This document shows positions 2,254-28,725 of a stretch of 30,820 bases of DNA, piece by piece. The DNA comes from Perkinsus chesapeaki (Eukaryota; Perkinsozoa; Perkinsida; Perkinsidae). The notes below the pieces were generated by a model. The model saw only the letters and a list, made by a program, of their open reading frames with translations, was not told the DNA's origin and did no database searches. Each line of letters opens with the position of its first letter. The stretch's first letter is position 1. Both the position numbers and the translations under genes were made by a program. The stretch lies in contig JAAPAO010000386.1 in assembly GCA_013115145.1 (NCBI GenBank), positions 1-30,820 on the forward strand, written 5' to 3'.

Positions 2254-2324
2254 CCTCAATAGGCCGGGTGTAAAATTTACACCCAGCCTATTGAGGGACT
2301 GAGGGATTTACACTGTAAATCCCT
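2254..2324. repeat. Pair of single-nucleotide-centre inverted repeats
   Basis: Two hairpins lie back to back. The first (2254-2296) has 21-nt arms around a single A at 2275 with one mismatch, which would be a G-U pair in RNA. The second (2302-2324) has perfect 11-nt arms (AGGGATTTACA) around a single C at 2313. The arm sequences of the two are unrelated apart from the TTTACA core. They lie about 150 nt beyond the stop codon of the minus-strand gene ending at 2470, so they could sit in or near its 3' end. Confidence 0.9.
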
Positions 2325-2429
2325 AACTCGGTAAACACTAAAATAAACTCAAGGCTGCTATAGGTTCAATGTCACTTCATTATCGGCAAATCAAATGCAA
2401 ATGTTACAACTATCAAAATCTAATTAAAT

Positions 2430-2455
2430 CTCGGCAGCCACGTGGACTTGCCGAG
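2430..2455 (-). promoter_or_regulatory. Conserved hairpin in the 3' UTR of the first secreted-protein gene
   Basis: CTCGGCA (2430-2436) pairs with TGCCGAG (2449-2455), with a partly self-complementary CCACGTGG in the loop. It begins 14 nt past the stop codon. The same hairpin, at the same distance from the stop, follows the paralogue at 3843-4313, while much of the surrounding UTR has diverged. That points to an RNA-level or 3'-end processing role, though recent shared ancestry alone could also explain it. Confidence 0.55.
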
Positions 2456-2469
2456 GACATCCTTCGACT

Positions 2470-2973
2470 TTAATGGACGCCACCAGCAAGATGATACACC
2501 ACGACTCCTGCCCAAACAATCCAGCTTCCGGCGATAACTCCACTCTGGTTAGACCTGCTCACATCCCTCAGGTTGCCGCTTGGAGGACCAGTCGTGCTTG
2601 TCGTTGATGGCGAAAGCACTTCCTCCTCTAAGGGAATAGTCATGGACTGCAGGAACTCCATAAAAGTCGGAGTCCCTTCTGAACCGGGAGATGGTTCTAT
2701 GGTGTCAGACGAGTCGAAGCTATGCTGGAGATCTTCCCAAGCCTGTTCCATCGGTGAAGCCGTAGTAGGAGACAGAACCAATTCGCTGAGCCTGTCAGCT
2801 ATAGACTTGGTCGTCGTCGCCGGAAGGATGGCAGTAGTGTAAGGGCCGGGGGTGGTGTCATTGCTTGAAGGGTAGTCTTGAAGGTGGTCAGATAACCAGT
2901 CCATGTTCAGATCGTCGAACAATGTTGCAACAACTAGGCGGAGCATAGTTAACCAGAGCACGAAGCAATGCAT
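2470..2973 (-). CDS. Small secreted or surface Ser/Thr-rich protein, paralogue 1
   Basis: A single-exon frame of 167 residues. It starts with a hydrophobic stretch typical of a signal peptide (LWLTMLRLVVATLF). A central region is rich in Ser, Thr, Pro and acidic residues (residues about 35-140), and a hydrophobic C-terminus (GSWIVWAGVVVYHLAGG) could be a membrane anchor or a GPI-attachment signal. It shares SIA[DE]RL[SA]ELV and SPMEQAW[EK]DLQ with its tandem neighbour at 3843-4313, which confirms the frame. Similarity extends through the upstream 250 nt and a hairpin just after the stop. The family is not one I recognise and looks lineage-specific. The Thr runs (ATTTKS, TTSTTG) could be O-glycosylated. 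No catalytic motif is visible. Confidence 0.8.
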   Translation of the reverse strand: MHCFVLWLTMLRLVVATLFDDLNMDWLSDHLQDYPSSNDTTPGPYTTAILPATTTKSIADRLSELVLSPTTASPMEQAWEDLQHSFDSSDTIEPSPGSEGTPTFMEFLQSMTIPLEEEVLSPSTTSTTGPPSGNLRDVSRSNQSGVIAGSWIVWAGVVVYHLAGGVH

Positions 2974-3225
2974 TTTGCTTGAATATGATAAAGCTTATAA
3001 GATAAACTGAAAAAGAGCAGTCAAGAACAGTTTTATTGTCCGTCATCGAATGCATGAGTGATCAAGTTCAGGGTCATACTATCCGAGTCATTATTACGAT
3101 AAAGCATTGCTCATCCTGTTATTTGAGGTCGGCGGTCGCGCGGTCGGGTGGTCGCGGGCCAGGGCGAACGAAATGTCAATCGTGGAAAACGGTTTTCGAG
3201 CGCTCTGGCGTTTCCCGTCGCAACG
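2974..3225 (-). promoter_or_regulatory. Conserved 5' flank of paralogue 1
   Basis: This 250-nt flank is shared, with substitutions and small indels, with 1660-1925 and more weakly with 4400-4520. A GGTCGCG-rich block and the block GGGCGAACGAAATGTCAATC, followed by GGAAAACGGTTTTCGAGCGCT, are the best kept. It presumably holds the promoter and 5' leader of the gene reading leftward from 2973. If the organism trans-splices a leader, the acceptor would lie here too, but I cannot place it. Confidence 0.5.
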
Positions 3226-3801
3226 CTCCATGTGCGGCTGTCTGACAGCTGCTGTCGAAGTGGGGAATTGCAATGCAGGCCACCGGCCAGCGTTGCTGCT
3301 TGTTGCGGCCCACTCAGACGGTCTGGCTAAGAGAGGATCAACCTGACCGGTCGCTATCAGCGGTTTATATCTTATAGCGCTAGTTTATGTCTTGTGAAGC
3401 TTATAACGACTCGTTCTAAACTTTAACCGATGCCGATACCACTGTTGCAGTAACAGGGCTACTGTAGCACTGAAGAGCTGCTCTTCAAGAGCACATAATC
3501 AGTGATTATTGGTCATTCCTCTAATCGACAGGCCTAAGAGATCGTCTTTAGTTAGTTTCTCATCATCAGGGATTCGGGTTTCACGGGGGCGTGACGTCCC
3601 GGACGTCCATCCCAACGTGAAACCTCCAAGGTTAGCCTCGGGCTTCATCCCCCATAAAAACTAAACGGCTTGTATGTATTTTATACTATGAACTTGCGTG
3701 AGCACTAAAATAAACTCAAGAACATAACTCATATAAATCGTTTTATCCCGTCGACGAAAACTCATGGTGCAAAATGTGACAATAATCCAATCTTAATTAC
3801 T
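3226..3801. other. Intergenic DNA between the two paralogues
   Basis: No gene seen. It contains GAAGAG/CTCTTC arms around 3473-3487 and GTTTCACG/CGTGAAAC arms flanking about 30 nt of GC-rich sequence around 3578-3625. The right part (about 3700-3730) shares CACTAAAATAAACTCAAG with 2337-2354, so the duplication unit includes the 3' flank. Short open frames at 3036-3346 run through the conserved promoter and look spurious. Confidence 0.5.
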
Positions 3802-3828
3802 CTTCGGCAGCCTCGTGGACTTGCCGAG
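3802..3828 (-). promoter_or_regulatory. Conserved hairpin in the 3' UTR of the second secreted-protein gene
   Basis: CTTCGGCA at 3802-3809 and TGCCGAG at 3822-3828 form the counterpart of the hairpin at 2430-2455. The stem is slightly altered and the loop is almost the same. It also begins 14 nt downstream of the stop codon. The preserved position in two genes is the main evidence. Confidence 0.55.
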
Positions 3829-3842
3829 CACCCTCATCGACC

Positions 3843-4313
3843 TCAACGACGACCACCGTTGCCAAGGTGTACAACTGCTATTACCAACCACACCAGCCAG
3901 CTCCTCCCGACAGCTCCGGTAGCTTTAGCGTAGCTCACCCTCAAGTACCCGCTCGAAGGAGTAGTCGTACTTGTCGTTGAAGCTGATAGATCCTCTTCAG
4001 AGAGAATCGTGATTGACATCAGCTCTTCCTCAAAGGAAGGAGTCTCACTCTCCGACAAGTCCAGACGATCTTGAAGGTCCTTCCAAGCTTGCTCCATTGG
4101 GGAGGGAGTGGTTGCTGGTGATACCAATTCCGCGAGCCGTTCGGCAATAGACTTAGTAGTCGTCGCTAGCTCAGGCACTATGGTAGTCATTACGAAACCG
4201 GCAGTGGTGTCGTTGTCCAACCCGTAGCCGAAGGGCGGCTCCACCTCGATCCCGTCGAAGAATGAGCCGCCAACCACGTACACCATAGTTAGCCAAATCG
4301 CGATAGAGTACAT
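3843..4313 (-). CDS. Small secreted or surface Ser/Thr-rich protein, paralogue 2
   Basis: A single-exon frame of 156 residues, a tandem paralogue of the gene at 2470-2973 and on the same strand. It has the same plan. The signal peptide includes IWLTMVYVVGGSFFDG. An acidic Ser/Thr-rich body contains ATTTKSIAERLAELVSPATT and SPMEQAWKDLQ. The C-terminus is hydrophobic (SWLVWLVIAVVHLGNGG). Conserved positions cluster in the SIAERL...PMEQAW...DLQ block, which is predicted helical and may be the functional core. The N-terminal 20 residues after the signal and the region after the core are much more diverged. This pattern fits a rapidly evolving exposed protein. Function unknown. Confidence 0.8.
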   Translation of the reverse strand: MYSIAIWLTMVYVVGGSFFDGIEVEPPFGYGLDNDTTAGFVMTTIVPELATTTKSIAERLAELVSPATTPSPMEQAWKDLQDRLDLSESETPSFEEELMSITILSEEDLSASTTSTTTPSSGYLRVSYAKATGAVGRSWLVWLVIAVVHLGNGGRR

Positions 4314-5174
4314 TTAGATTTAGTCTAATGAACTGAAAACTGTACGAATAACATCCAGTGCCATCCTCAGTCACATTCAGGAAATCTAAATCCGCCGGCT
4401 CACAATAACGTCTAGTTAATGCACTAAAACGTTATTCATTTCCCAACCTCGACGGCTGCGGTCGCGGACAGGGGCGAGCGAAATATGATATCTGGAAATG
4501 GGCAAGTTTCGAGCGCCTCGGAAACACTCCTTTGGCCCCCGTCAATGAGTCTCAATGAGGGCTCATTGCAGATTAGTTAGAGCAAGCGCAATTAACGGGA
4601 GGTTCTAGCCCTGACGAGCGCTGTAGTGCCATTACAGGGGCAACCCATTGAACTGGGGCGATCTACTGAGATACAATCGGGCCCCTGCAGTAGCGGAGTA
4701 TCGAGCTCAATGAACGTTTTTTAAATTGTACATTGAGTCTAGTATTTTGTATTCGTTGAAGTCACAACGGTATCTAGGAGCAACTCCTACAGAAATGTCG
4801 CGACTCGCGAGTGATACTCGCGAATTTTATTCATATCAGTAGCTAAGATGTCGTATTACATATTGAGCATATCTGTGCAGTTTTCTATGTCTACCATCTC
4901 TAATGCTGTATAGATTATACAGTATAATACTCTCTTATTGCTCAGATACCTCCTCACTTCGCAGTGCTGCAAGTTGGATTGAAGACCCTTATTAAGGGTC
5001 CCTTGAGGGCTTTAACGTAATTGTTCTCTCCGTCTATACCAGACATACGTTTCTACTGCAAAATAGTAACCATCGAGTTGGTTAATAGCTTTACATTCGT
5101 CGAGTCGATCAGACTATGTTAGTCCGAATCGTGCTGCTCGATCGAGTAGAGCAAAAGGAGTTGAGAAGCTTAAG
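4314..5174. other. Intergenic DNA with a faint promoter-repeat copy
   Basis: 4400-4520 keeps weak similarity to the 5' flanks at 1660-1925 and 2974-3225 (GGTCGCGGACAGGGGCGAGCGAAAT, GGAAAT.GG, TTTCGAGCGC). That supports its role as the upstream region of paralogue 2. The rest has no gene I can support. At 4984-5000 there is a perfect 8+1+8 inverted repeat, GACCCTTA-T-TAAGGGTC, and CTCGCGAG-type palindromes lie near 4803-4825. Confidence 0.5.
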
Positions 5175-5324
5175 TTAAGGGGAGATGATACGAAGTTTGA
5201 TAGCTTGGATCACGTCGAACTCGATTCCATGACGAGAATGTATTGTCACGCGACAGGAAGCGATGCGCGATATGACGTGCGTGAGAAAGAGATATGGTCT
5301 GGATTCCATATCTCTCTCTACCAT
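5175..5324 (-). pseudogene. Second copy of the conserved coding fragment
   Basis: A 49-codon minus-strand frame (Met at 5324, TAA at 5175) contains LTHVISRIASCRVT and GIEFDVIQAI. It matches the third-frame block at 1-105 (LTHLISRIASCRVT, KFDVIQAI). Of the codon differences between the copies, about half are third-position synonymous changes (TCA/TCC, CGG/CGC, GGT/GGA, GAT/GAC, ATA/ATC), the mark of past selection on this frame. A second minus frame through the same DNA is also open but not conserved. The 5290-5319 part is an inverted repeat (AGAGATATGG/CCATATCTCT). It is either a fragment of a dead gene or one exon of an unrecognised gene. Confidence 0.45.
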
Positions 5325-5627
5325 GCGCTGTGTTGGAGAACAGTACTACATTGGCAAAAGCAATGTACCGCATTCGGCCCCCACTCGAATACCTCCTAGC
5401 TATTGCCTGGGAGCATATTACAGCGTTTACATAATTTTTTGACAATTAATATTTGCACAGACCGGTGTATCCTAGACACGCAATGCTTGTTGATGTGCAG
5501 CCTACTGGGCTTCACTAAGGCCCCTTATATAATGCAATAATGAAAGACCATATTGACCGTCTACGCAATGAGTCACTCCGAATAAGCACAGGTTCAAATC
5601 CCGGTTATGGCAGCTTTGGTGAGTATG

Positions 5628-5656
5628 AGGATGTATCTAGGCCCTAGATACATCCT
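5628..5656. repeat. Perfect 14+1+14 inverted repeat
   Basis: The arms AGGATGTATCTAGG and CCTAGATACATCCT flank a single C at 5642. It is intergenic and has no sequence relation to the other inverted repeats in the window. Confidence 0.9.
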
Positions 5657-5976
5657 AGATTCTAGGGATATACTTTATCTTCAGATACTCGGAGGCCTCG
5701 ATCATCACGTTGGGCTACGGCGGAGATGGAAAACTTTCTAAGGCGAAAAGGTAACTTTGCAATTACGCCTTACGATAACCATCTATTGTCGTCCACACTG
5801 TGGAGTACTGTGCGGTTTTTTCCCATCCCAATGCTATTTCGATTTGAAATAGTCACCTCTTTTCGAAGGTTTACATATGACAAATGAGATTATGAGCTAT
5901 TTCATGCTCGCTCAATGTTCTTTGCGCAGGCTGAAGCTCTGCCTTGAAGATAGGAATACATACGAAAAAGGGATAC

Positions 5977-6005
5977 ATGAAGTCACTTTATTAAAGTGAC
6001 TTCAT
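5977..6005. repeat. Perfect 14+1+14 inverted repeat
   Basis: The arms ATGAAGTCACTTTA and TAAAGTGACTTCAT flank a single T at 5991. It is intergenic, 320 nt from the previous one, with the same geometry but different sequence. Confidence 0.9.
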
Positions 6006-6646
6006 TACTGCGGAGTTTATATTCGCAGGGATTTTCGGTTCTCAGAAATTCGCCGTTTATTCTGAGTTACTTCAGGCGAGATTTTGTCGAGCCTCGAAGG
6101 GATCCGTAAAGAAATCGGGGCACTTGAACGATGTAGAGAGGCGCTTGCAAGCGAGACATCACGGGCTGGTGTTCAAGGTGGGTGAGGGAGTAAAAATGAT
6201 AATAATTTTCTCATTTATGAGAGTGCCATGTAAATTAGGCTTTAGAAGGAGTGTGCGACTCAGTGTCTATTGAATAGATAGTATGATACTATTAGTATCT
6301 CTGGAAACCCTCGCGGCATGTAAATCAGCTGATCGACTTGACAGTCGAAGTGCTACGATGCTGCCTACAAACGGTTCCAAGACACGTCACTTGTGAAATA
6401 ACCACTTTCGCGCAGAATGAGAAATGGTTGATAAGTGGAAGCGAACGGTTCTCGTTGGCTACTACTAAGCACATCATAGGCGTCCAGGGTAATGGTCTAT
6501 TGTTCGTAAATTACTACGAATTTCGTGGGTGGGTAAGCGCATTGCATCGAATGCCAGCAAGGGATGAATTTTACTGCAGCTTGCTGGGTTCGTTCGCACA
6601 AGTTTGCAATAGGCATACACCTTCTCGTGAGATTTACTGCTAAGTT

Positions 6647-8982
6647 ATGTTGCCAGGTATTGTAGATGGATTCGAAGATGCTAGAGTATACATAACTAAC
6701 CAGTTACAAAGGATTAAAGTGCAGGTAGATTACTGCGTGATCGATTCAGGATTTCTGAATTCATAATAGAATACTCCATAACTTTCCTAAGAATCTATCG
6801 CTTTCTGAATCAGGAAGCTACGCTGGGCTTAGAGCGCCGATGCTGTGCGAGCATGTGTCGGACTCTTCATGCGAATGTTTTATCAGATAGAAGAAGAATC
6901 AGATGCCACGGAGGAATTCGGGCAGAAATACGGAACCCAGAGTAGCACGGATCTGCGAGCTCGACGAAGCGGCTGCCTCATGCTCTTGCATGAGATGAAG
7001 AAATTGGTGAGTGCCCCAAGATTCAGCCAAGATTACTTTGCCAAATTCTTCGTTCTGCGCACCGCTGCTGTGATGGCAGCAGGCTCCGCTGCCTTCACTA
7101 AAACTTCTAAACGGCTCACTAAAACTGCCTTCACTTAGGGACGGCAGGTTTAGGCTGCTAAGAAGTTGAAAAGTTGGAAAACTAGTTACAGTTAACAGCT
7201 ATCTAAGCTGTTATAAGTTATTAAGATAAGTCATGAAAATACTAACAGTTATAGCTTATAGCCGTTTGTATTTTTATGACGTTCCTACCTTAACGCTTAG
7301 TTGGAAAAAGTTGTTCGACTTGATCTGTTCAAGTTCAGATTGTTCAATCTGCTCCAGCCAGTGTCAGGTGTCAAATACAGTGTCCCTCTAATGTTCAGCA
7401 TTAGAGAGGCACTGTATCTGAATTAGATAATCTGGTGACGCTGGTGCATCTATTTGTCTCACTGCCTTGCCCCAGTGCGATAATCTCATATTTCTAAATG
7501 GAAGCGGCCGACTCTTTGCTTCATGTTGCTTGTGTTACAGATAGGACTGCTATATGGCGAAGTAGAAGAGTTTCGACGAGATTTGAGAATGCACTTGAAG
7601 AGCCAGTTGGCAATTGCGTTACCAAATGCAAATGATGAAGAGGTGAGCTTGCAAGCACTGGACCGATCTGCATTGCAGATTCTGCAAATATACTGCCGCT
7701 ACTGGTGTGTGTGCACTCCTCAGTATTTTAGTTTCTACTGTACTCTTTTAGCTTGAAGAGGCTCTTGATAAAGGCATTGACTTGAGGCAAGTGCTCAAAA
7801 AAAGAAGTTCCACCGGTCGCGTTATGAAACTGCAAGAATTACAAGATCAGTAAGATTCCACTTCTTGACTGTATATGACGTTCGTTATTCTCGGCACTGA
7901 GGGCTAAGCGAAATCCCGTCAGACGATTCTTACAATGTGGCTGTGTGAATGTGTACAGCAGCACGCAGATGCGTAAGGTCATTTCTCTTGCAGGCGATCG
8001 GCGGTCGTTCTTCTGGAGAAGTCAGTTGTGGAAACGCAAGAAATGATGTCCACGCTAGCCGTAGGATTCATTCTGACACCTCTAGCTGCTATTGGCTACT
8101 CTTTAGCTGCTTATAAACCATCAGGGAGGGCTTCTTGATAGTATCGAGTTTGATGTTGTGAATAGCAAATACAATGCAGGTAAGGAGGCTCTGACTGAGG
8201 CAGGCTGCCTCTATGGTGTAATAAGTCTTAAAGTTTAATAAGTTTACTCACGTGTACCTATTCGCAGCGAATTCGTGTCCATTGTGAATAATAGCTAGCA
8301 CTATCTGTCCAACTTTATCGCTAAATCCATGCTTGATAAGCTAGGGTGTTATGTCTCACGAATAGCGAGTGAACAGGTCCTCATGTGCCGTTGTTCCGTC
8401 TTCTACAGTGTGTTTACTACTCGAGGTTTCCTCCCATTGACTCGGGGATGAGGAAATATTGAATAGGAACTAATCAATTACAATCCACTTAACGTCGCAT
8501 TATACATGAACAGCTTTAATGAGTAAAACGTTACGACCTGAGAGATGTATAGACGCGGTGGTCCCGAATTATGCGCCTTATGGTCAGCGAAAGTGGTCCC
8601 CAGATACTAAGTAATAATTTCTCATTGTTTTAGATAAGACATACCGGTCTTTAGTCGATACCAGAAAGAACCAGAGGCGTACTCAGCTGTGTATGCTAGG
8701 CTGCGGCTGTTGCTGCGTGCTTGTCATTGCTCTTATTGTAAGTTGTCATCACACTATGGTATGCAATTGTACAATTGCAAGCATGCAATCACTATGATTT
8801 ACAAAAATCTCTGTAAGTTCTTTCCCATTGTGTATTGGCATAGTATGGGCAGCTGCCGGCATAGATTATATACAAAATACACTAAGTTGTCGAAGCAACC
8901 AGAACATCAACATGAAACAGTATTCAATAGTCCCTTTTTTCAGGTTTTAGTTCTCCTTTTGTTATTCGGTCGTCGCGCATGA
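6647..8982 (+). CDS. Syntaxin-like Qa-SNARE, 8 exons, 226 aa
   Basis: Syntaxins drive membrane fusion by pairing their SNARE helix with R-, Qb- and Qc-SNAREs. I join exons 6647-6724, 6887-7006, 7541-7642, 7752-7849, 7994-8060, 8107-8179, 8634-8737 and 8944-8982. All junctions are GT-AG, phases are consistent, and the frame ends in TGA. The N-terminal half (residues 1-130) is helical and acidic, the place of the Habc-type regulatory domain. The SNARE motif reads LLEKSVVETQEMMSTLALLI followed by NHQGGLLDSIEFDVV, with the zero-layer glutamine at about residue 161 in the usual syntaxin context (.HQG.LLD.IE). A Cys-rich juxtamembrane patch (CMLGCGCCC) leads into a C-terminal tail anchor (about 199-222) ending FGRRA. 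The cysteines are likely palmitoylation sites. Syntaxin assignment is firm; the target membrane is unknown. The second-exon acceptor could instead be at 6819. Confidence 0.85.
7375..7417. repeat. 19-bp-arm inverted repeat in a syntaxin intron
   Basis: The arms 7375-7393 and 7399-7417 match at 17 of 19 positions around a 5-nt loop (TTCAG). It lies inside the 534-nt second intron of the syntaxin gene. Confidence 0.85.
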
Positions 8983-9049
8983 CTCGCACACGAGCACGTT
9001 TTGTTGAGTTGGTTAATTAATATCAGCTTTGGAATATATCCAAAAAGAC

Positions 9050-12000: not shown

Positions 12001-14175
12001 ATGGACATCAACCAGGATATTAAAGGTCGGTCTTATAACGTGGAGAGAATGGGAATTCTACTATTTCAGATGCAATTGACGCAAAACAGAAGGCGAAGAA
12101 GGAGGAAGCTGAACAAGCAGAGATCCTTATAAAACAGCAGGCAAGCGGTCGCCTTTGGTTTCCGACCTCCACACTTGGCCTGTTGGACAGTTGGCTGCGG
12201 CAGAGGCAAATGAGAAGGCCAAGATTGACGCTTTGAACAAACTGAAAGATAGGATAAAGCAAATCTCCAACACGATCGGGAAAGCTGTCGGTGACGAGAA
12301 CAAAGTAGGCTGTGCGTTGACATAAGATATTTGTACTCTTCATTTTATGTTGGATGCGACACGAAACCGACTGGCAGTCGGCGACTGCAACCTAGGCATT
12401 TTGCTTCGAAGCTTCCCATCGGCTTTGTCAGATAGGATTCGTTCGGAAAACCGAGACCTCAAGTCTATGTGTTGTGGAAAATGGATCACTTCACCGCTAT
12501 GGACTATCTAACCTCCTGTGCATCCACAATCTCCTAGTCGAATCGCTACAGAAAATATTCTCTCGATGCCGATTGAGGGGAAAATCGGCCGGAAATTCCG
12601 GTCGATGGTCCGGTCCGGTCGGTCGGGGTTTGAGGGAAATTTCACACAATTCCGGTCCGGAATTGTGTGAAATTTCCCCAACATTTTCTTTCCTAGGACC
12701 TGCACGCATTCATTGGGTGTTTTGAGCGATACTTATACATTTAGTACCAGTTGTCAGTGCAATTGCTCAGAAACGGGAAGAGGAAGAGGACCGCCGACTT
12801 GAGGCTCATTTGCGTGCAGCAGAAATTGCCTCCAGAAAAGTAAGGGCGGCCAATATGTGGCTGCGTCCCGTTTATGTTTAAAGTTTATGGCGAAAATGGC
12901 TATGTGAGCTCTCCTCCATTCAAGGCGAGAAGTGCTACGCTTATTTTTTCGGATGATCGTCGAAGATACAGAGCGTCGATCCTGGAAAGGGCTGTCCGTT
13001 TTCGAATAGTAGATTCCTGTATGTGTTAGGCCGATGCCGATAAGCGCTCAAGGCAAGAAAAGGCGAAAAAGGATATGCTAGACACGCTTGCACAACAGGT
13101 AAAATCTTCCGAGTGCGAAGCTTGGAGTTGCCTTTTAGGTTCAAGAGAAGGCGGAGCTGAGGAAGCTCGAAGCCAATAGCAATAAACTCCAAGTGAGCCG
13201 GCTAGCGAAGCTTCGCTAACATTGTGATAAATAACCGTTCATTAGAGTGGACGGTTTGCTGAGAGCTGATACATCGGCTAAGTCAATCCAGCAACCGAGT
13301 CTCGAAGTAGAATTCGTGTAGCTATGATACTAGCTTGTAGTTTGGTCATATCGATTCATTCGCTATCACAAATAGGCTGCCTATTTGATGTCATTGAAGC
13401 AACCGCAATGAGTGCCTATTATAGGCACTCATTGCGGTTGCTTCAATTATATAATATTACGCTCTGACTGATGGCCATGTGTGCTCGTTTCTCAGCGTCC
13501 TTACATTTGCTGAGCAAATTTTACTCATTAGCTTCCGTCGACGTGGTCAGGAAAGGATCCAGCCTTACGGTCAGTGTTCCCAACGCGGAAATATAACAGA
13601 ATTTTATGTGTGAAAATATGATCCTAGACCCGAAGTGCACTTCCTCTGGGAACATGTAATTGATGTATCTCAATTATTTCCTCGAGATGATATGTCATCA
13701 TTGATAGCGACTAGTGGGCTCTATGTAGGGTAAGGTGTCGAGAGAGATGGCATTGGAGGCGTTGCGAAAGGAAGCTGAGGAAGAGGAAGACAGGAAACGT
13801 ATGAGGGCAAATATGGACAAAGAGCTCGTAAAGGCGTTGTCAGCAGCGCACTCGACATGCCCTGCTCGATTCAGGAAAAGCAAATACGCTTTGTTAATTT
13901 GACTACCGAGGAAGACAGGATGGACGCCGATCTGCAACGTCGCGAGCTAGAGTTCAATCAACCTCTGTTCCGGTATTTTACTTGGTGTCTAGCCAATTAT
14001 CTTACGCTTCTGATTATCTATCAGCGCTCTATATATTAAAACTTTCAAAAGGTTTACCTCTTAGAATCTTGAATGTGCTACGCTTGGAGAGAGAGTTTGT
14101 CTATTACTGTGGTATGTCAGGCAAATGGCAAGTCGCAAGTTTAAAGAGGAAAAGACCAATAAGCTCCTATTGTAA
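9050..14175 (+). CDS. Long charged coiled-coil protein, about 20 exons, about 545 aa
   Basis: From 9630 the exon chain is secure: 9630-9717, 9764-9867, 10423-10545, 10608-10700, 10749-10841, 11446-11505, 11932-12025, 12070-12140, 12191-12304, 12771-12839, 13030-13098, 13139-13192, 13729-13827, 13875-13972, 14121-14175 (TAA). Every junction keeps phase. Residues from about 190 are Arg/Lys/Glu/Ala-rich helix (DYKNALDAQMS, RRQRREMAEKEAERKEGLER, EALRKEAEEEEDRKRMRANM). The C-terminus is RKFKEEKTNKLLL. The 12141-12190 intron is GC-AG. The N-terminal part is less sure: likely exons are 9050-9125, 9200-9255, 9286-9366, 9408-9431 and 9476-9592, needing introns of 28-44 nt. It resembles trichohyalin/plectin-homology-type axoneme or basal-body proteins, plausible in a zoospore-forming protist, but I cannot name it. 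9050-9592 could be a separate gene. Confidence 0.75.
12634..12678. repeat. Perfect 22+1+22 inverted repeat
   Basis: The arms 12634-12655 and 12657-12678 are exactly complementary around a single T at 12656. It sits in the 466-nt intron (12305-12770) of the coiled-coil gene, preceded by GGTCCGGTCCGGTCGGTCGG-type GC-rich repeats at 12590-12630. Confidence 0.95.
13369..13447. repeat. Paired perfect inverted repeats, 9+1+9 and 27+1+27
   Basis: 13369-13387 is CAAATAGGC-T-GCCTATTTG. Five nucleotides later, 13393-13447 has perfect 27-nt arms around T13420. Both lie in the intron 13193-13728 of the coiled-coil gene. Both centres contain a short GCCTAT core (GCCTATT in the first, GCCTATTATAGGC in the second), so one may have seeded the other. 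Confidence 0.95.
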
Positions 14176-15304: not shown

Positions 15305-16478
15305 TGGATCCGAACGTCCGGCTTACTGTATGATATCAGTAAGAACAGTCCCAGGAATAACTTACACCCCATGGCTAACCACGGGCGCCGAAAACCCTAA
15401 CGACGTGTTGCTTGTTCCTCGTTCATATGGTCGAACACAAGGCGAGAAGGGAGTCTACAAAGGCTTCTACTTATTCAGCTTACATTCGCAGGAGGATTTA
15501 GCTGTGCGCGCATGTACAAGGGAGCGAGCGGCGCGCAATGAATAACACGAAGTTAGGCTAACGTATGCGTGCAACCGTGTAGATCACATAGCTAATGGCA
15601 AACTGTGCAACTATTTACGAAGGGCAGTGAAAAGATAACCATTCTCAGCTACCTACACTGACTAAGTTAAACTGAAATCCTAGCAGTGCTAGGCTAGCAC
15701 AGCTAATCTCAAGCTAGTGCGGTGCACTAAGTGCACATAGAGTGACATAGCCCATAATCTATTTCGTTCTGTGGCCATGTCGAGCCGCGCTTCTAAGTGA
15801 GGCGTGATATGCTACGAACTGACTCATATTTGATCAATAACTGACAGTTATTGCTGCGAGCAGTCGTTCGGCTTCCACCATCCCCACTTCGCTTGTGGCT
15901 TCAGTCGATGCGGCAAGTATCGGGGGCTGCGCTCAAGGAGACAAGCTTCAAAAGGCAAGGAGGGATATGAAGAACTTATCGTGCAGCACTACAGTATTCT
16001 GGTTCCTTTGTTGTGTTATCCTTAGGAGTTCATCAACTAATACCGCGCCACTCGCGCCTCATAGCGTAAGGCGTTTTAAGGTGAGGTGAGCGAGGTGCAC
16101 CTTATAGTCAAAATAGTAAGGTTGTGAAGGAGCCTTGCCGAAAAATTGTAAGGCGCCTTAAGGTTTTTGCACCTTGTGACGTCTAGTGAAATATGCCCCC
16201 GGACCTCCTCCAGTAATGCTTGACAGCACAGCTAATATCTCAGCTACAGGAGTATACGAGTTCATGAATACCTTCATTCATCTATGTCTAAGACATAATG
16301 TCTTCAGGTATGCAGCTACTGCGTGGCGCGTCACGCGCTCCCTGGAGCATTCCTGCGCTAAGTCAGTGTGACTTCATTGATACTTGGTTTTTCCCAAGCC
16401 TGCCTCTACCAGAATATGTCTGGGTGCCAAAGTCGGTCTCAAGGACCCGGGTGTAGTCATCGCTGTGTACTTCACTTC
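15305..16478. other. Spacer between divergent protease genes
   Basis: The cathepsin B-like gene reads left and the aspartic protease reads right, so this 1.17 kb should hold both promoters. The frames open at 15330-15545, 15895-16089 and 16186-16371 show no domain or conservation. Local features: GTGCTAG-G-CTAGCAC near 15689-15703, and a cluster of related AAGGCG/TTAAGG/GGTGCACC words at about 16066-16175. Confidence 0.45.
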
Positions 16479-17657
16479 ATGCGGGTTGCTTCATTCATGT
16501 TTGGAATTTTGGGTTCAGTTAGCCTACCCGTTGGTGATGGACACTTGCTAGAACTCGACGCCGTACATGGAAATATACCTGGTTATGAAGGTCGGCCTGG
16601 CTTATATTGTCATATCAAGGATCTAGGGTTGTGGGCTGTGGTGGACACTGGCGCCCCGATATTCCACTTAATCTGGAGGGAATGGTTTGAGTCTGTCATG
16701 GGCCCCCATTCATGTGGTCTCTTACACGCTGGTTGTTATGTATGCAAGACTCCATGTGATCCTCGGCATGCCGTAACTCGTGTTGAAACTTTTTTAGATG
16801 GTACAAGCATAAATATCTTCGAGCATGAAGATGACTTGAAGATAGGGTCTGTGGACGTGGGCAAAATGAAGTTCCAGCTTACATTTGGCCAAGATCCCCC
16901 ACCTAGTGTATACCCGGTTTTCAATCTACTCGGTTTGAGACGACAACCCGAAGGCGGTTTCCCCCCGCTGCTCTACCAATTGATTGATAAGAAGCCCAAA
17001 ATGGTAAACAGCAAAACATTCGCTATTTAGCTTGATGAAAAAGCTCCTAACAGGGACTTATATTTTGGCAAGGTCCTATTGGGTGGTGGTGACCCAAACC
17101 GCTACAAGCACCCATTACTATACCTGACTTTTACAGATGCAACATATTATATGGTACCACTGAGTAGTATGCAAGTTGGTGATGGTCATCCACCTATAGG
17201 TATTTACTGGAACATATTGCTCGATAGTGGGAGCAACGCACTGGTTGTACCACCAATTCACTTTGACGCAATTATGGAAGATATCTCTGAAGCGGTTGGA
17301 CAGCCGCTTAGGTGGAATCCGGCAGCTAAGCTATGGTTAATTCCGTGTAGCTACTATAACTCAATGCCAAAGTTGATGCTTAACTTGGGCCCTAAAGGGG
17401 AGGTTCCCATCATTATGAGTAATGTTAATTATGTGCGTCCAGATAGCAAAGGCGAGAAATGCTCGATTATGATCTTAAAACGGGATATACCTTACTGGAT
17501 CCTTCCCGCTTCGGCTTTAATCGGGTATTACTTCGAGTTTCAAATAGATAATAGACGAGTGGGAATTGCTGAAACTGTTACTCAAAGTACTTCCCTCCGT
17601 CACTTCAACGGGTCGGTACTCGCCGGATCTCCGAGTGGTGCAAAGTTATCTATTTAG
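16479..17657 (+). CDS. Pepsin-like aspartic protease (A1 family), secreted
   Basis: The reading begins at Met 16479 with a signal peptide (RVASFMFGILGSVSLP) and gives about 383 residues, a normal pepsin length. Catalytic aspartates lie in VVDTGAP (about residue 56) and LLDSGSN (about 240). PVFNLLGLR matches the FDGILGL position and the C-terminus (IPYWILPASALIGYYFEFQI, then RVGIAE) is canonical. The usual flap tyrosine context is not recognisable (DGTSINIFEHEDDLKIG). Between the two lobes the same frame meets one TAG at 17028-17030. It ends a 27-nt GT...AG segment (17004-17030) whose removal restores a continuous protein joining KKPKM to LDEKAPNRDLYFG. So the options are an ultrashort intron, read-through, or a disabled gene. 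Cysteines (GLLHAGCYVCKTPCD) suggest disulfides. Likely role: digestion in the secretory or vacuolar pathway. Confidence 0.85.
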
Positions 17658-18297
17658 TCAACCTCCACTTGGGCAGGTAGATGCCTTAGCTGATATGATC
17701 TGACCATAGACTAAGGACTCGACCAGCTTCCAAGTCTTTGAACTATTCCACTCAGATGTATTATCAATCTTTGTCTCTTCATATGTCTGCGTGCTCAAGC
17801 GCACGAGTGCTTCGCTCGGGCCGAGCTATGGCAGTCGTTCATCAACACAAGTGTTACGGTCGTAGGCAGGCCCTTGTTAATAGGTTAAGGTGCTTCGGTT
17901 TGTTGAATCCTATAACCTATTGAATCAGAAGTATTGATAAGTCCTTTCCCTTTTTGAGACCTTAATGGCTCAGAGTTCAGTCCAGAGTGGCAATCAGGCA
18001 GATGCGTACAACTCCTACCCAAGTCTGATTCTGTTTTTGTAGACCGATCACAGTTCCTACCCAAAACCCATCAACCCGACTCGTCCGTGAGGGACGTATC
18101 AATCTGTCTATCTGTATCTTTATCTATAATTCTGTGATCCGATTTTCCAATACCTCCATAGCGTTCCATTTCCGAACAACTGTTCCAACTTGAACTTTCA
18201 AGTGAAACAAGAGGTACCCTGATCATGGCCTCCACCGATGAAGGAAAGCAACAGCCTTGCCAAGGCGTGGAACAATAACTATCATTTCCGAATTAAG
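17658..18297. other. Intergenic, mostly no gene
   Basis: Nothing convincing is coded here. A short frame from ATG 18238 (MKESNSLAKAWNNNYHFRIK, then a GTGAGT donor at 18297) looks like a first exon but I could not connect it in phase to the next coding-like stretch. Confidence 0.35.
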
Positions 18298-18533
18298 TGA
18301 GTCGTACGGAGAAATGTTATCAAGTTGATAACGCGACAACATCGCAGGCACTCGTTCTTGCACGTTCGTTCGTTAAGGAAATGCAACTCTTGAAAGTCTT
18401 GTAACTCCCCTTACAGATGAGCCATATTTTATTGAGGGAGATTGTCGAGCAAAGAGAGAAGGGTATCCCGCACTCTGACGAGCCCGATGGCTGTGGTGAC
18501 CGTGGCCACTGGCTGTTCAAACTTCAACTCTGA
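18298..18533 (+). CDS. Possible small protein, exon structure unresolved
   Basis: Two plus-strand stretches look coding. In 18350-18398, ALVLARSFVKEMQLLK runs up to a GT. After an AG at 18416, a frame from 18417 to a TGA at 18531-18533 reads MSHILLREIVEQREKGIPHS and DEPDGCGDRGHWLFKLQL. Joining them needs a 21-nt intron (GTCTTG...TTACAG), shorter than any secure intron here. A possible first exon is 18238-18296. A perfect 8+1+8 inverted repeat lies at 18316-18332. No domain recognised. The antisense frame 18320-18520 is judged a shadow. Confidence 0.3.
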
Positions 18534-24500: not shown

Positions 24501-27500
24501 CTATCCGTCCTCGCAGCTACTCCTCGACGCGTAAGCGAAAGGTCTCTGGTTCGATTCCTGGCTGATGCTTTTTTCTTGATAGAATCCTCCTTGTAGACGT
24601 TGCCCTGCAGTTTCATACCCAGTTCAGTGAGAATGGCGCATTGATATCGAGCCGGAAGCGGATTGCTAGACGGTAGGCTTCGTCTGGGGTTGCTATTCTT
24701 ACTCAACGTACACGAGTGCCAATGAAAGTGGAGTCTTCGTCAAATGTTAAGCCTTCATCCTCATGCTTGTTACCGATCGATGTCATCGGTTGGAGGTTGT
24801 TATGGAATGAACAACCCGAAACCCGAATTTGAAATACTCGACAAATCATTTATCAACCGTTCCTATCGAATAAGACTTTCACGGTTTTCAGTCGGTCAAT
24901 AAGTTGTCCTCCAAAACTATAGAGGTTGACGCGTGCATTCTGTGCGACAGAAAGATTCTTATCGAGTTTACTATAGCAGGAAGCCTTTGTTCTTCACCAT
25001 TACCTGGAATTTATCATTTGTGGATCGTCGCCTGATGGCTGTCCCCGGTCGTCAGGTACTTCAAGTCCTGGCTCTGGCCAGAACTGCTGACATCCATACC
25101 GTGGGGACTGGTGGGTCTGAGTAGCTATGATGAAGACCTAACCTCATCGTGCTCAGTTCATTCCAGCATACTCTCGTGAACTGTCTGCTATCAAATTGGG
25201 AAGGACGGTATCACTGTCGAGACTGGGCAACATGAGTATGACAATTATGGCTAAGGTGGAGCATCGAGTGCAGAGCGAGATCTGGTGGATTGTACTGGGA
25301 GTCTTGAAGCTGGTATGTCAGTGTACAGCGAGCTGCCATGGCATGACAATAGAGTCTATCTCCTCCACACTTCATCCCATCACCTCACACTCGTCCTACA
25401 CCTTATTAGCATTAGTCTGGTTTAAGGGCTACTGGGCCCAAAGGTTCGGGCACGAGTTTCAACGTTGGACACAGGCAACCTCATGGAAGCGCGCATCTTT
25501 CGGAGGAAATATAAAAGCAACTTTAGTGTTATCCTGTTTATTGGGGACTTATGACTTGGAACTGTCGTGATTCTGGCAATACCGAGTATCTCTTCGATAC
25601 TCGTTAGAGTCACCTTTAGGTATCTGCGTTGTTGGTCATGTGCCATTGGGGAGCATGCTTGTGGTGGCTTATCGGCAAGGTAGGTAAAGTAACTCAGCAC
25701 TGTTGCTGCTGCTGCTGCAGCTCCTAAGACTCCATCGGCTCCTTAAGCAACGGTCTCTTTCATAACATCAACTAACCGATGTTATGAAAGGGTAGGCCAG
25801 CGCCGGATGCTATCTTCAGCTAAACCCACCATACACGCTCTTCCTCTATGAGAAATTATATCTAGTGCGTTCTGCGATGTGTTAGTTAAGTCTCCGAGAT
25901 TACGAACTGTCTTGGATAACCGAACTGGACATGGCCGATGCCTCCCAAATCCATCAGTATGTCGCTGCACTGTAAAAGAGGGAGATAAGTTAACAATTCA
26001 TATAAGTCGGTCAGATACTTTATGACCACAACGCTGACCACTGTCGGTTATGGTGACGTTACACCTGAAACCCATGTTGAACGGGTTTTCTGCATTTTTG
26101 CCGAGATTGTCGCCGGCAACGTGAGGAGCGTTGTGCCCATTGCTTGTATTGTTTTTCTTGTTTTGTGCGTGCATGCCACGTGTGCGGAAATAAGTAGAGT
26201 AATCGTTTGTAAATATACTTGTTAAATGTTAAAGATATCTGGGTAATTGCTCGAGTGTCGATTATAATTCTCGTCGATACTTCTGATCGATTCGTAAGAA
26301 TCTATCACACCCGCCTGCGGGTCTTTGTGTCACAAGGGTATAGCGCTTGAAAGACTTCCCAGCACGCGAATGGTTGCTTCCGCTGCAGTGCGTTCATATT
26401 CGTCATGAAATTTATGCCCATTCATTCTCTTCTAATTGCAGAATGGAGGTCTCAGTCTAGTGCGGCCCTGCGCACGCGAAATATAAATTCTTGACCAGCT
26501 TGCCCAATAAATTCGAAGATACCGTATAATTATTAGCATGTATTATGACCTCCCATATGAGTATCTCTGGGAGCGTTGAACCAGTAACAATGATTTCAAT
26601 CATTCCATTCCCTGCTTGTTTTTATACCACATTTCTTCCACATGATGTGGGCCACATCCCTGTAGGTATTCGCGCTTTTCTCTGGTCTTCTATGTGCTCT
26701 TATGTTGACCTATGATGAGAGTGGCGCTCAATATCGAGCGAAGTTGAAAGATGCTATGAGGTCGGTATGAGGGAATATGCACCCATTGTCGGCTTTCTCA
26801 ACAACTTGTGCGTGAGAGGCGGCAATAAGTGGTTGATAGCATTTAGAAACTGTCTTACCTAATCATATGGCTCACCATTTCTTTCGATGATCATTTAAAA
26901 ATAATGAGTTTAATGATGATGTCAGGTCAGTTCAGTTTCCAAACTATCTGAGCTAGAATAGTCATGTCAGCAGTAATGCTTCATATCCGATACTAGTGAA
27001 CTGCCCTTTGATATGGTATAATATTACTCATGATTTTTATGCTTTACAGTATTAAATAATACTTATTAATAATGTTAGTTGAACTTATAGTACACGGTTC
27101 CGCAACACGTCCTCAGCAACTAGGTTTTTTGCTCATATTGCATATTTATTCGATATTAATGTCGTATGAGTATAAAGTATATATATTTTGTGCGTATTAT
27201 TACCAATAAAGATGTTGTGTATTATTGGTAATAATACGCACAAAATATATATACTTTATACTCATACGACATTAATTAAGATGTTGTGTAATCCTATATT
27301 TTTCCTAGTATACCCCGAGTAAGAGCTATCGATTAGTGCATAGCATCTTAACCCCTCTAGATCGTCGAGTTGCTGGATAAGTTGCAGTTCGCACGCACGT
27401 CCAAAGTGAGAGTATCGCAGTTATTGATTAATTTTGATATACTTTTTATTATGTGTCGTGAGGTGTGGGAATCGGTGACCTAGGGGTTCTAATCCGTGAA

Positions 27501-28725
27501 CGGCGTCTTAGCTTGAATACATATAGACCCGCACCGAAGTGAGAAATTGTGAGCAAAGATGCTAAGAAATATTGAGAGAAATGTAGGCGAAGTGAAACTC
27601 TGTCATCTGTAAAAAATCGACTGGGAAGCGAAAGAACTACCGTGCATGACAATTCCGCAAAATGGACATTTTGTATTTTTCGAACTACATATCGCGACAA
27701 ACATACGTGGCAGTATCAAAGACCTGAACTGTTAAAAAGTAGCTTGGACTCCGTGAAAGAATCCGACGGCTATCGGATATCTGCGGTGATTGCTGTTAGA
27801 TACATGAACAAGCATAAGCTCGAGTCGGGGCTTAGGATAAGAGTCAGGAACTTCCTTCATCAGTTATTTGAGAACCAAACCAATCTCGAGGTGAATTTCG
27901 TGGCGCGGTGACGCTTGATGAGCTGGGTGGTGCTGGTTCTATGAAACCAAATCAACCCTGGGAGTCGCTCATTTTTGATTATATTTTTCTGGGGATTTAT
28001 TTCAACAAAAAAAACCTCAAAACATTTTTTCATATTTTTCCGTTCAGTCTCGGCGAGCCTTGGTGGAGTTTTTGAGAACGAGTGAGAGCCTGCAGCGTGA
28101 CGTCTATGTTGGTTTGATGGGCAAGATGCTGAAAAGATACTCCTGGTTCCGGGGCCTCACTCACGAGATTCTCGGCAAGGTAAGTTGTAGTTTCTAGAGG
28201 CATGTGAGCGTGGGAAGAATCGATATTATTAAGAATATATCTAGTATAGGCTTATCTCATAATAAGAAGACCTTCTTCCTATCATCAGATGAGATACTGT
28301 TAAAGTGTATTGTTAATTGTTCTTCTTCTTCTGAATAATAATAATAATATCCGACTGATGAGATCGGGAGCTTGCTCACTCTAGTCAGCACTTTGCGCCA
28401 AGAACGATATAACCATCATCATGATGGTTATATCGTTCTATGTTGGCAACATATGGGCCAACATATGCGCCTATGGGCAAATGCCGGCCATGATGGCATC
28501 ATGGCCGGCATTTGCCCGATGAACCGTTTACACTATGCCACCACACAGCGGTCTTGACCTGCGAGATCTCCCGCGGTGGTGGGCACAATTGTTGACTGGC
28601 TTGGAACTTGCTCAGGTGTGCTCGGTATGTGAAGATATTTATTATGCACCTATGGATGTTATGATATATGCTAAAGAGAGCGCTGATGGTATGTACTTTG
28701 TTGTTAGAGGAGCCATTGAGCTGGG
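21518..28725 (+). CDS. Voltage-gated-type K+ channel with cyclic-nucleotide-binding domain (EAG/CNBD superfamily), 20 exons resolved, 3' end open
   Basis: Exons: 21518-21593, 21640-21759, 21804-21926, 21966-22077, 22354-22771, 23138-23223, 23268-23353, 23678-23767, 24355-24437, 24487-24530, 24583-24672, 24980-25110, 25167-25312, 25620-25679, 25886-25971, 26015-26120, 26666-26760, 27800-27890, 28048-28179, 28616-28725; all GT-AG and in phase, about 761 residues. Residues 1-370 are cytosolic: low complexity, Ser/Pro/charged, a Gly7 run, a DDSDSEDD acidic patch. S1 reads RIMWDMIVAAALVYVILGIP, S2 ILLVDVALQFHTQFSENGAL, S5 VMCHWGACLWWLIGK. The pore is LYFMTTTLTTVGYGDVTPET (filter TVGYGD, about 593-598). 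S6 contains VFALFSGLLCALML. A C-linker with NFLHQLFENQT precedes a CNBD start (YYAPMDVMIYAKESADGMYF). S4 (KLGRTVSLSRL) has few basic residues. The 24980-25110 exon is the least certain. CNBD completion lies in 28726 onward and was not resolved. Confidence 0.9.
25757..25790. repeat. Perfect 13-bp-arm inverted repeat in a channel intron
   Basis: CTTTCATAACATC (25757-25769) and GATGTTATGAAAG (25778-25790) flank an 8-nt loop. It sits in the 206-nt intron between the S5 exon and the turret exon, downstream of a short CTG/CAG run (about 25703-25721). Confidence 0.9.
26121..26665. other. Channel intron, pore to S6, 545 nt
   Basis: Bounded by GTGAGG and CTGTAG. No exon-like frame or repeat stands out inside. 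Confidence 0.6.
26761..27799. other. Channel intron, S6 to C-linker, about 1.04 kb
   Basis: Donor GTCGGT after ATGAG and acceptor TGTTAG before ATACATG give an in-phase join (DAMRYMNKHKL). The intron is AT-rich and contains the 55-bp-arm inverted repeat. The minus frame 27449-27700 shows no domain. Confidence 0.6.
27155..27276. repeat. Giant perfect inverted repeat, 55+12+55
   Basis: The arms 27155-27209 and 27222-27276 are complementary over all 55 positions. The 12-nt loop AGATGTTGTGTA (27210-27221) occurs again immediately outside the right arm (AAGATGTTGTGTA at 27278-27290). The arms are AT-rich with a GTGCGTATTATTACCAATAA core. There are no obvious transposase genes or target-site repeats. 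If transcribed with the channel pre-mRNA, it would form a 55-bp RNA duplex. Confidence 0.95.
28180..28615. other. Channel intron, C-linker to CNBD, 436 nt
   Basis: Bounded by GTAAGT and GCTCAG. It contains TTC and AAT triplet runs (about 28318-28350) and the paired inverted repeats at 28401-28517. Confidence 0.65.
28401..28517. repeat. Paired perfect inverted repeats, 19+1+19 and 21+1+21
   Basis: 28401-28439 has perfect 19-nt arms (left arm AGAACGATATAACCATCAT) around C28420. 28475-28517 has perfect 21-nt arms around G28496 and a GCCGGC-containing stem. Between them ATGTTGGC and GCCAACAT form a weaker third stem (28440-28465). The whole lies in the intron before the CNBD exon. Confidence 0.95.

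What the first reader, a model, noticed from the sequence alone, without database searches (positions are those of the whole stretch)
2254..28517. A recurrent class of inverted repeats with a one-nucleotide centre
Perfect or nearly perfect inverted repeats whose arms are separated by exactly one base occur at 2254-2296 (21-nt arms, one mismatch), 2302-2324 (11), 4984-5000 (8), 5628-5656 (14), 5977-6005 (14), 12634-12678 (22), 13369-13387 (9), 13393-13447 (27), 18316-18332 (8), 28401-28439 (19) and 28475-28517 (21). Arm sequences are unrelated, so this is not one dispersed element. All lie outside confirmed exons. Arms of 14-27 perfect pairs are far beyond chance in 31 kb, and the constant odd centre suggests one mechanism: fold-back priming or intrastrand template switching, or a hairpin-shaped mobile element like the double-hairpin elements known from organelle genomes. 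Perfect arms imply recent origin or continuing correction.
Basis: partly seen in the sequence, partly recalled or inferred. Interest (0 to 1): 0.75.

Follow-up and report, generated by a model that had tools for sequence, protein, structure and literature searches.

The report
Transposon excision scars in Perkinsus
The mirror-image repeats look like scars left where a cut-and-paste mobile element jumped out and the cell sealed hairpin-capped DNA ends; such scars are known from laboratory transposons, but this oyster-parasite relative seems to carry very many of them while the elements that made them have not been found.

Summary
In detail: all 11 inverted repeats are present, and the one-base centre is a sharp excess in a wider sample of the genome (29 of 107 short-spacer repeats). 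The arms are not all unrelated: neighbouring palindromes share one 8-mer, T. The basic unit is T(1-7)+rc(T)+T(2-8), 22 nt; it occurs 60 times at <=1 mismatch in 271,187 bases (about 0.06 expected), far above any other geometry tried. Longer palindromes extend past T into the flanks. In repeated sequences, copies without the scar carry one T-like 8-mer and the scar is a clean 14-nt insertion (45 of 48 comparisons empty), including two sites in this window against 8 paralogues. This is the footprint expected when a DNA transposon with 8-bp target duplications leaves hairpin-capped flanks with a one-base tip, as hAT elements do: the hairpins are opened several bases away and the ends rejoin, often through the 8 complementary bases of T. 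Template switching and self-mobile hairpins are not supported. hAT transposase remnants occur, but no resident element with 8-bp duplications was found in the sample. New variant of a known kind; hAT is likely, not proven.

The parts
2254..2329 (.). Long-arm footprint, T=GTGTAAAT: left palindrome 2254-2296 centred on the complement of T8, right palindrome 2302-2324 (decayed arms to 2329) centred on the complement of T1
   Evidence: same T read from both palindromes, predicted order
4985..5006 (.). 22-nt footprint, T=ACCCTTAA, one mismatch (overlaps the listed 4984-5000 palindrome)
5628..5667 (.). Footprint, T=ATCTAGGG: left palindrome with 14-nt arms; right side trimmed to AGA.T.TCTAGGG (5657-5667)
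   Evidence: 11 of 11 of the predicted partner signature
5977..6005 (.). Footprint, T=ATAAAGTG (22-nt unit 5977-5998, one mismatch) whose right palindrome has 14-nt arms
   Evidence: no separate partner signature (best 8 of 11)
12588..12678 (.). Long-arm footprint, T=ACCGGAAT: decayed left palindrome around 12595, right palindrome 12634-12678 with 22-nt arms
   Evidence: partner signature 10 of 11
13369..13447 (.). Long-arm footprint, T=AATAGGCA: left palindrome 13369-13387 (9-nt arms), right palindrome 13393-13447 (27-nt arms)
28401..28517 (.). Long-arm footprint, T=CCATCATG: left palindrome 28401-28439 (19-nt arms), right palindrome 28475-28517 (21-nt arms)
15679..15700 (.). 22-nt footprint, T=CCTAGCAC; 14-nt insertion absent from 8 of 8 paralogous copies
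15715..15736 (.). 22-nt footprint, T=TAGTGCAC, one mismatch; 14-nt insertion absent from 8 of 8 aligned paralogues (7 of these scored, all empty, by BLAST)
1830..1851 (.). 22-nt footprint-like unit, T=GCGGTCGC, perfect, in a GC-rich 15-nt tandem repeat; least certain
3472..3493 (.). 22-nt footprint, T=GAAGAGCA, perfect
3586..3607 (.). 22-nt footprint, T=GGGACGTC, one mismatch
4907..4928 (.). 22-nt footprint, T=TGTATAAT, one mismatch
6278..6299 (.). 22-nt footprint, T=ATAGTATC, perfect
7666..7687 (.). 22-nt footprint, T=ATCTGCAA, perfect
12367..12388 (.). 22-nt footprint, T=CCGACTGC, perfect
13505..13526 (.). 22-nt footprint, T=ATTTGCTC, one mismatch
16283..16304 (.). 22-nt footprint, T=TATGTCTT, perfect, just upstream of the aspartyl protease frames; the paralogue L089 aligns too poorly here to show an empty site
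26637..26658 (.). 22-nt footprint, T=CCCACATC, one mismatch
18316..18332 (.). Listed 8-nt-arm palindrome with no partner by exact-T pairing; compatible with chance

Best explanation
The repeats are excision footprints of a cut-and-paste DNA transposon that makes 8-bp target duplications and leaves hairpin-capped flanks, most likely hAT-like. Steps: (1) insertion duplicates an 8-bp target T. (2) On excision the transposase nicks each flank one base outside the element; the free 3' end attacks the other strand, so each flank becomes a hairpin whose single tip base is the complement of the base next to the element (T8 on the left, T1 on the right). (3) The cell opens each hairpin some bases from the tip, leaving a 3' overhang that is an odd-centred palindrome. 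(4a) When both overhangs hold all of T, they can anneal through the 8 bases rc(T), giving T(1-7)+rc(T)+T(2-8), a net 14-nt insertion. (4b) Opened farther away (up to 20 bases past T here) and joined after partial trimming, they give two long palindromes, left centred on T8' and right on T1', with the same T. Shown: the sequence structure, its geometry, and its absence from paralogues that keep one T-like 8-mer. Inferred: the transposase, the hairpins, the opening nuclease and the annealing step.
For: Geometry scan: T length 8, overlap 1 gives 60 sites at <=1 of 14 mismatches, 0.06 expected; four even-overlap geometries with the same number of compared bases give 0 or 1, ten third-order Markov shuffles none. 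Pairing: 42 pairs of odd palindromes (arms >=7) share T; for the 36 at centre distance 7 this follows from the geometry, but the 6 at 30-76 bases are all in the predicted order, 0 reversed; 10 shuffles give no pair of either order. Of 29 odd palindromes with arms >=9, 14 have a >=10 of 11 partner signature on the predicted side, 1 on the wrong side (both members of a pair counted). Insertion: 45 of 48 paralogue comparisons over 14 footprints are empty, two footprints in the window against 8 paralogues. Target bias: T at position 2 / A at 7 pooled 53 of 126 (P=2.5e-4), the Hermes pattern nTnnnnAn (passages of PMC10368747, PMC10512250). Ac/Ds footprints have palindromes centred on the complement of the base next to the transposon ends, arms up to 20 nt in yeast (passages of PMC5873905). 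Kat1 hairpin mostly one base from the repeat start (passages of PMC4763223). hAT dimerisation domain: 4 matches.
Against: No element with terminal inverted repeats and 8-bp duplications was found in the sample, although the footprints imply many past insertions. The hAT matches are few, short, and not shown to lie in intact elements. The target bias is modest, and I noticed it on part of the same list before testing it. Geometry (7,1) is also above expectation: 10 sites against 0.74, of which 5 are neither low-complexity nor overlap an 8-bp unit; a minor 7-bp class or noise. Some of the 60 are low-complexity (for example L019 2803). One odd palindrome in L052 has its left tip four bases inside the expected place (read by eye). 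The 16 aligned copies of one ~330-nt repeat hold no footprint at <=2 mismatches. Two of 48 comparisons score 'filled' and one ties; both 'filled' are L018 1245 and 9368 against each other, where each copy has its own footprint a few bases apart. With longer flanks a third weak 'filled' appears (window 1830, 83 against 79 bits). At least three odd palindromes (window 18316 and 15844, L009 1670) have no partner.
Confidence: 0.85

Rival explanations
1. The source element belongs to another superfamily with 8-bp duplications (such as Merlin) or to an undescribed hairpin-forming transposase; the footprint mechanism is the same but the enzyme is not hAT.
For: Merlin elements make 8- or 9-bp duplications and remnants occur in Perkinsus marinus (passages of PMC8101967). 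No hAT element with intact ends was found here.
Against: The Merlin catalytic domain PF12762 has 0 matches in this genome. Palindromes centred on the complement of the flanking base are documented for Ac/Ds (PMC5873905 passages). The T bias fits a hAT consensus.
Confidence: 0.2
2. Fold-back priming or intrastrand template switching during replication or repair.
For: It produces perfect inverted repeats; the 27155-27276 repeat, whose loop sequence recurs after its right arm, looks like this.
Against: It predicts variable spacers and lengths, not a fixed 8-mer with one-base overlap, nor long pairs sharing T in one order (6 to 0), nor a 14-nt net insertion beside a single T in the empty copies.
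Confidence: 0.04
3. A domesticated transposase or programmed excision removes insertions almost completely (as internal eliminated sequences are removed in ciliates), so that scars far outnumber elements.
For: 46 footprints (<=1 mismatch) in 240,367 bases outside the window, with no resident element of matching type in the sample. The organism is a Perkinsus, an alveolate (71% match to P. chesapeaki).
Against: No nuclear dimorphism is known in Perkinsus (recalled). Mutated footprints (40 sites at 2 mismatches and 78 at 3, against 2-9 and 17-25 in four control geometries) suggest that the scars are old and inherited. Absence of elements was tested in under 1% of the genome.
Confidence: 0.1
4. 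Assembly or amplification fold-back artefacts.
For: Fold-back artefacts create inverted repeats (general knowledge); raw reads were not available.
Against: Fixed geometry, a graded mismatch spectrum, avoidance of open frames (7 of 58 against 40.8% of bases) and clean placement within aligned repeat copies.
Confidence: 0.02
5. Functional RNA hairpins or regulatory palindromes kept by selection.
For: Long perfect arms; mostly outside open frames.
Against: Rfam finds nothing in the window (0 matches). Different sequences, private to single repeat copies where tested. An RNA hairpin would not need a one-base centre.
Confidence: 0.01

Closest known systems
Ac/Ds (hAT) excision footprints in Saccharomyces cerevisiae, Arabidopsis and Candida albicans (PMC5873905, PMC1978519; passages seen)
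   Same: Odd-centred palindromic insertions at the empty site, centred on the complement of the base beside each transposon end; arms up to 20 nt reported in yeast; microhomology-assisted joining; 8-bp target duplication for Ac (PMC10512250 passage), 7 bp for the Ds site of PMC1978519.
   Different: There: one engineered site, many alternative products (28 different footprints in C. albicans). Here: a natural record at many sites, and one product class, T(1-7)+rc(T)+T(2-8), makes up 36 of 42 strict pairs (a scan that favours this class). I did not see this exact class described in the passages; the Lazarow 2012 and Yu 2004 papers were not held.
Hermes and Kat1 hAT transposases
   Same: Hairpins on flanking DNA (PMC4763223 passage); Kat1 hairpin formed mostly one base from the repeat start (same passage); Hermes target pattern nTnnnnAn with 8-bp duplication (PMC10368747, PMC10512250 passages).
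   Different: The Perkinsus enzyme is not identified; the target bias is weaker (53 of 126 pooled).
P nucleotides of V(D)J coding joints, long ones in scid cells (recalled)
   Same: Palindromic additions from off-centre opening of hairpin-capped ends.
   Different: Different recombinase; no 8-bp target duplication (recalled).
Introner elements of Amoebophrya (PMC7789003, passages seen)
   Same: An alveolate with inverted repeats of 8-20 nt and short direct repeats in non-coding DNA.
   Different: Those inverted repeats pair the two ends of whole introns with 3-5-nt direct repeats; here the palindrome is the whole insertion.
Double-hairpin elements of organelle genomes
   Same: Two neighbouring hairpins.
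   Different: Those are sequence families; here each unit copies its own target.

Membership tests
hAT excision footprints | 8-bp target duplication | tested here: met
   Peak at T length 8, overlap 1: 60 sites at <=1 mismatch, 0.06 expected; even-overlap controls 0-1; a far smaller excess at length 7 (5 clean sites, 0.74 expected)
hAT excision footprints | Palindromes centred on the complement of the base next to each transposon end (T8' left, T1' right) | tested here: met
   6 of 6 long-distance pairs with a shared T are in this order; partner signature 14 of 29 predicted side, 1 of 29 wrong side; known rule from PMC5873905 passages
hAT excision footprints | Absent from copies never visited; a single T there | tested here: met
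   45 of 48 comparisons over 14 footprints; 14 of 81 footprints had a usable paralogue; alignments. The empty copies often carry T with one or two changes
hAT excision footprints | Target preference nTnnnnAn | tested here: inconclusive
   T at position 2 / A at 7: 53 of 126 pooled against 26.75% expected, P=2.5e-4, but weak; only 10 of 60 have both
hAT excision footprints | hAT transposase genes in the genome | tested here: met
   Dimer_Tnp_hAT: 4 matches over cut-off; DUF4371: 2, one of them at the same locus; short, interrupted frames
hAT excision footprints | Resident elements with terminal inverted repeats and 8-bp duplications | tested here: not met
   In the window, sample and four hAT loci, none with >=12 of 14 matching ends; 6 hits at >=9 of 10, of which 4 are one repeat array in L015 and 2 do not extend. 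Under 1% of the genome was tested
hAT excision footprints | Hairpin-capped excision intermediates | not testable with these tools
   Needs biochemistry
Merlin transposons | DDE_Tnp_IS1595 transposase | tested here: not met
   0 matches in this genome
Template-switch / fold-back mutations | Variable spacer and length set by local microhomology | tested here: not met
   Spacer excess at 1 and unit length 8
Double-hairpin mobile elements | Copies of one hairpin sequence at many sites | tested here: not met
   Genome searches with 13300-13500 and 1-9000 return the palindromes 13393, 2254, 5628 and 5977 only as their own reverse match (best candidates only); each unit copies its own target

The most novel reading that the evidence does not exclude
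Perkinsus carries out near-quantitative excision of newly inserted hAT-like elements, by a host-controlled or domesticated transposase coupled to a repair route that opens hairpins at least 8 bases from the tip and rejoins them through the full reverse complement of the target duplication. The genome then keeps thousands of stereotyped 14-bp scars and almost no elements: a heritable relative of programmed DNA elimination in a non-ciliate alveolate.
Probability: 0.1. Interest if true: 0.88.

Novelty: new variant of a known kind. Interest (0 to 1): 0.62.

Why it matters
A genome with very many excision scars of mixed age is a natural archive of how a eukaryote opens and joins hairpin-capped breaks, otherwise studied at a few engineered loci. 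The main product implies opening at least 8 bases from the tip and annealing through the target duplication. The scars add 14 bp each, would mislead palindrome-based annotation of this genome, and give a way to count past transposition even where no element survives. They also pose a question: where are the elements?

Tried and rejected
Self-mobile hairpin element: rejected, no shared sequence among the four palindromes searched and each unit copies its own target. RNA function: Rfam 0 matches. The 1190-1546 repeat as the source element: it looks like a mariner-type element with TACAG...CTGGTC ends (a recalled resemblance), and its 16 aligned rows hold no footprint. The 156-nt repeat in L018 9463-9618 as the source: inverted ends in one copy but no 8-bp duplication that I could see (by eye). 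L028 as an intact hAT element: its transposase part is single-copy or diverged, and the repeat at its left end is another family. Loss of end-joining as the cause of long palindromes: not supported, since a weak Ku match with three stop codons inside and a DRMBL match exist. Merlin: 0 matches. Geometries (10,3) and (12,5) share the odd centres and the centre distance 7 with (8,1) and are taken as the same events.

Limits: the 240,367 sampled bases outside the window are mostly contig starts, not a random draw, so 'thousands' is an extrapolation (46 per 240,367 gives about 6,800 in 35.4 Mb). L049-L068 and L081-L092 were fetched because they are copies of sampled or window sequence, so one search is not a random sample. 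The open-frame test excludes L008 (58 of 60 units). Low-complexity targets were dropped but not. For the 36 pairs at centre distance 7, shared T and order follow from the geometry, so I do not count them as an order test. The match of L012 4880 against L017 (59 bases, 76%) is weak evidence of an empty site. No other eukaryote genome could be scanned. 'Not in print' rests (open-licence papers; listings, with passages of seven papers seen).

Full report
1. The observation. In the window 11 repeats with arms >=9 have spacer 1, against a mean of 0.17 in 12 shuffled windows. Odd-centred palindromes with arms >=7 number 170 and even-centred ones 26; ten shuffles give 166 odd ones in all, 16.6 each. 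The organism is a Perkinsus: the aspartyl protease frame at 17031-17657 is 71% identical over 62% of the query to a P. chesapeaki protein.

2. The structure behind it. An alignment of two duplicated stretches in L018 showed 14-nt insertions private to one copy, of the form X-c-X'-d-X. A scan for X-c-X'-d-X with spacers 0 to 4 found 42 cases with X of 6 or more at spacers (1,1), every one with X of exactly 6 bases, and at most 3 at any other spacer pair. Reading in the bases on each side gives T(1-7)+rc(T)+T(2-8), with T an 8-mer. Scanning T lengths 5 to 14 and overlaps 0 to 4, length 8 with overlap 1 gives 60 sites at <=1 mismatch of 14 (0.06 expected); 36 are perfect (a few are low-complexity). 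Even-overlap geometries with the same number of compared bases, (7,0), (9,2), (11,4) and (13,6), give 0 or 1. Of the other geometries, (10,3) and (12,5) score because they share the odd centres and centre distance of (8,1); (7,1) has 10 sites against 0.74 expected, of which 5 are neither low-complexity nor overlapping an 8-bp unit, perhaps a minor 7-bp class. Sites with 2 and 3 mismatches are also in excess (40 and 78, against 2-9 and 17-25 in the four even-overlap controls), as expected for a decaying older population or for trimmed joints.

3. The long palindromes belong to the same class. Take a left palindrome as T1-T7, then the complement of T8, then the complement of T7 onward; and a right palindrome as its mirror with the complement of T1 at the centre. 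Then T can be read from each member. Among odd palindromes with arms >=7 there are 42 pairs within 200 bases that give the same T. For the 36 that lie 7 bases apart (the 22-nt unit) this agreement and the order follow from the geometry. The other 6 lie 30 to 76 apart; there T is read independently, and all 6 are in the predicted order and 0 in the reverse, with none of either order in ten shuffles. They include 2254/2302 (GTGTAAAT), 13369/13393 (AATAGGCA) and 28401/28475 (CCATCATG); one, in L025, has a low-complexity T. For 5628-5656 the right member is trimmed (AGA.T.TCTAGGG, 11 of 11 of the predicted signature), and for 12634-12678 the left member is found at 12588 with one mismatch. 4984-5000 and 5977-6005 lie in 22-nt units with one mismatch. 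Of all 29 odd palindromes with arms >=9, 14 have a near-perfect partner signature (10 or 11 of 11) on the predicted side and 1 on the wrong side (members of one pair are counted separately, and members of 22-nt units can hardly score in this test).

4. They are insertions. In families of repeated sequence the footprints tested are private to one copy. In the window, 15679-15700 and 15715-15736 are 14-nt insertions missing from all 8 aligned paralogues, and one paralogue (L083) has a footprint of its own that the window and the other seven lack. The same holds for four copies of the L009 4051-4600 family and for L069 in a third family, where 8 other copies lack the insertion, 5 of them with T, CTGATAGC, unchanged. 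Overall 14 of 81 footprints at <=1 mismatch had a paralogue spanning the site: 45 comparisons were empty, 2 filled, 1 tied. Both 'filled' scores come from L018 1245 against 9368, where each copy has its own footprint a few bases away. With longer flanks the count was 25 empty, 3 filled, 1 tied, before the last family was fetched. A repeat of 16 aligned rows had no footprint. Footprints avoid open frames: 7 of 58 inside frames of >=120 codons that cover 40.8% of the bases, 1 of 58 against 22.3% for >=200 codons. A 14-bp insertion would shift the frame.

5. Mechanism. An 8-bp duplication of T, palindromes centred on the complement of the base next to each end, and arms that run on into the flank are what excision with hairpin-capped flanks predicts. 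[quoted passage not shown] cerevisiae (passages of PMC5873905); Ds footprints in Arabidopsis are explained by hairpin formation, opening and microhomology joining (passages of PMC1978519); the hAT enzyme Kat1 forms the hairpin mostly one base from its repeat start (passages of PMC4763223); Hermes prefers 8-bp nTnnnnAn targets (passages of PMC10368747 and PMC10512250). Here T shows T at position 2 or A at position 7 in 53 of 126 pooled positions (26.75% expected, P=2.5e-4; position 1 has P=0.03, positions 3 and 4 none). I infer that each opened hairpin leaves a 3' overhang. If both overhangs contain all of T, the left one ends in rc(T) and the right one in its complement, so they can anneal over 8 bp and give exactly the 22-nt unit. 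If the nicks lie farther out and the ends are joined otherwise, two long palindromes with the same T result. The arm lengths put the nicks up to 20 bases beyond T (centre 13420, 27-nt arms).

6. What is missing. hAT dimerisation domains occur at four loci and a related domain, DUF4371, at two, one of them the same locus, but the frames are short and interrupted. No element with inverted ends and 8-bp duplications turned up in the sample, which is under 1% of the genome. Merlin, another superfamily with 8-bp duplications that is reported in P. marinus (passages of PMC8101967), has no catalytic-domain match here. So the footprint mechanism is well supported, the hAT origin is likely, and the element itself is unknown. 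With 46 units per 240,367 bases outside the window, a plain extrapolation gives about 6,800 in the genome; the sample was not random.

7. Verdict. Footprints of this sort are known from engineered hAT sites. A genome loaded with them, with one stereotyped 14-bp product class and no matching element found so far, is to my knowledge new.

Noticed in passing
A dispersed repeat follows at about 27299-27399.
   Followed up: partly
window 16321-17708: Aspartyl protease gene (Pfam Asp) with relatives in the same genome at 89% (C536) and 77% (C357).
   Followed up: partly
window 1190-1546: Dispersed repeat with TACAG(T/A)CTGGTC ends, about 25 listed matches; looks like a mariner-type non-autonomous element (recalled); no footprints in the copies aligned.
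   Followed up: yes
window 2470-2994 and 3843-4313, minus strand: Two related small predicted proteins with a signal-like start and a shared TTTKSIA(D/E)RL motif; local duplicates (also 1657-1909 against 2965-3204, 78%).
   Followed up: no
L052 (C168:55200-55750, reversed): A long odd-centred palindrome pair whose left tip lies four bases inside the place that the 8-bp model predicts; not explained.
   Followed up: no
L008 8425-8460: Overlapping chain of odd palindromes (three 22-nt units at <=2 mismatches in 36 bases), perhaps a second visit to an existing footprint.
   Followed up: no
L007 4207, L012 4667, L017 4682, L023 96, L025 5647: Five units of the same shape but with a 7-bp T; a possible minor 7-bp target class.
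   Followed up: partly
window about 5588-5615: GGTTCAAATCC resembles a tRNA T-arm / B box (recalled motif); ARAGORN finds no tRNA in the window.
   Followed up: no
L069-L080 (copies of the 72-nt start at L028 444-515): A dispersed repeat family starting TGCAGCGAGAGAGGGTTGGCTGGCTCGCA, of unknown type, with several footprints.
   Followed up: partly
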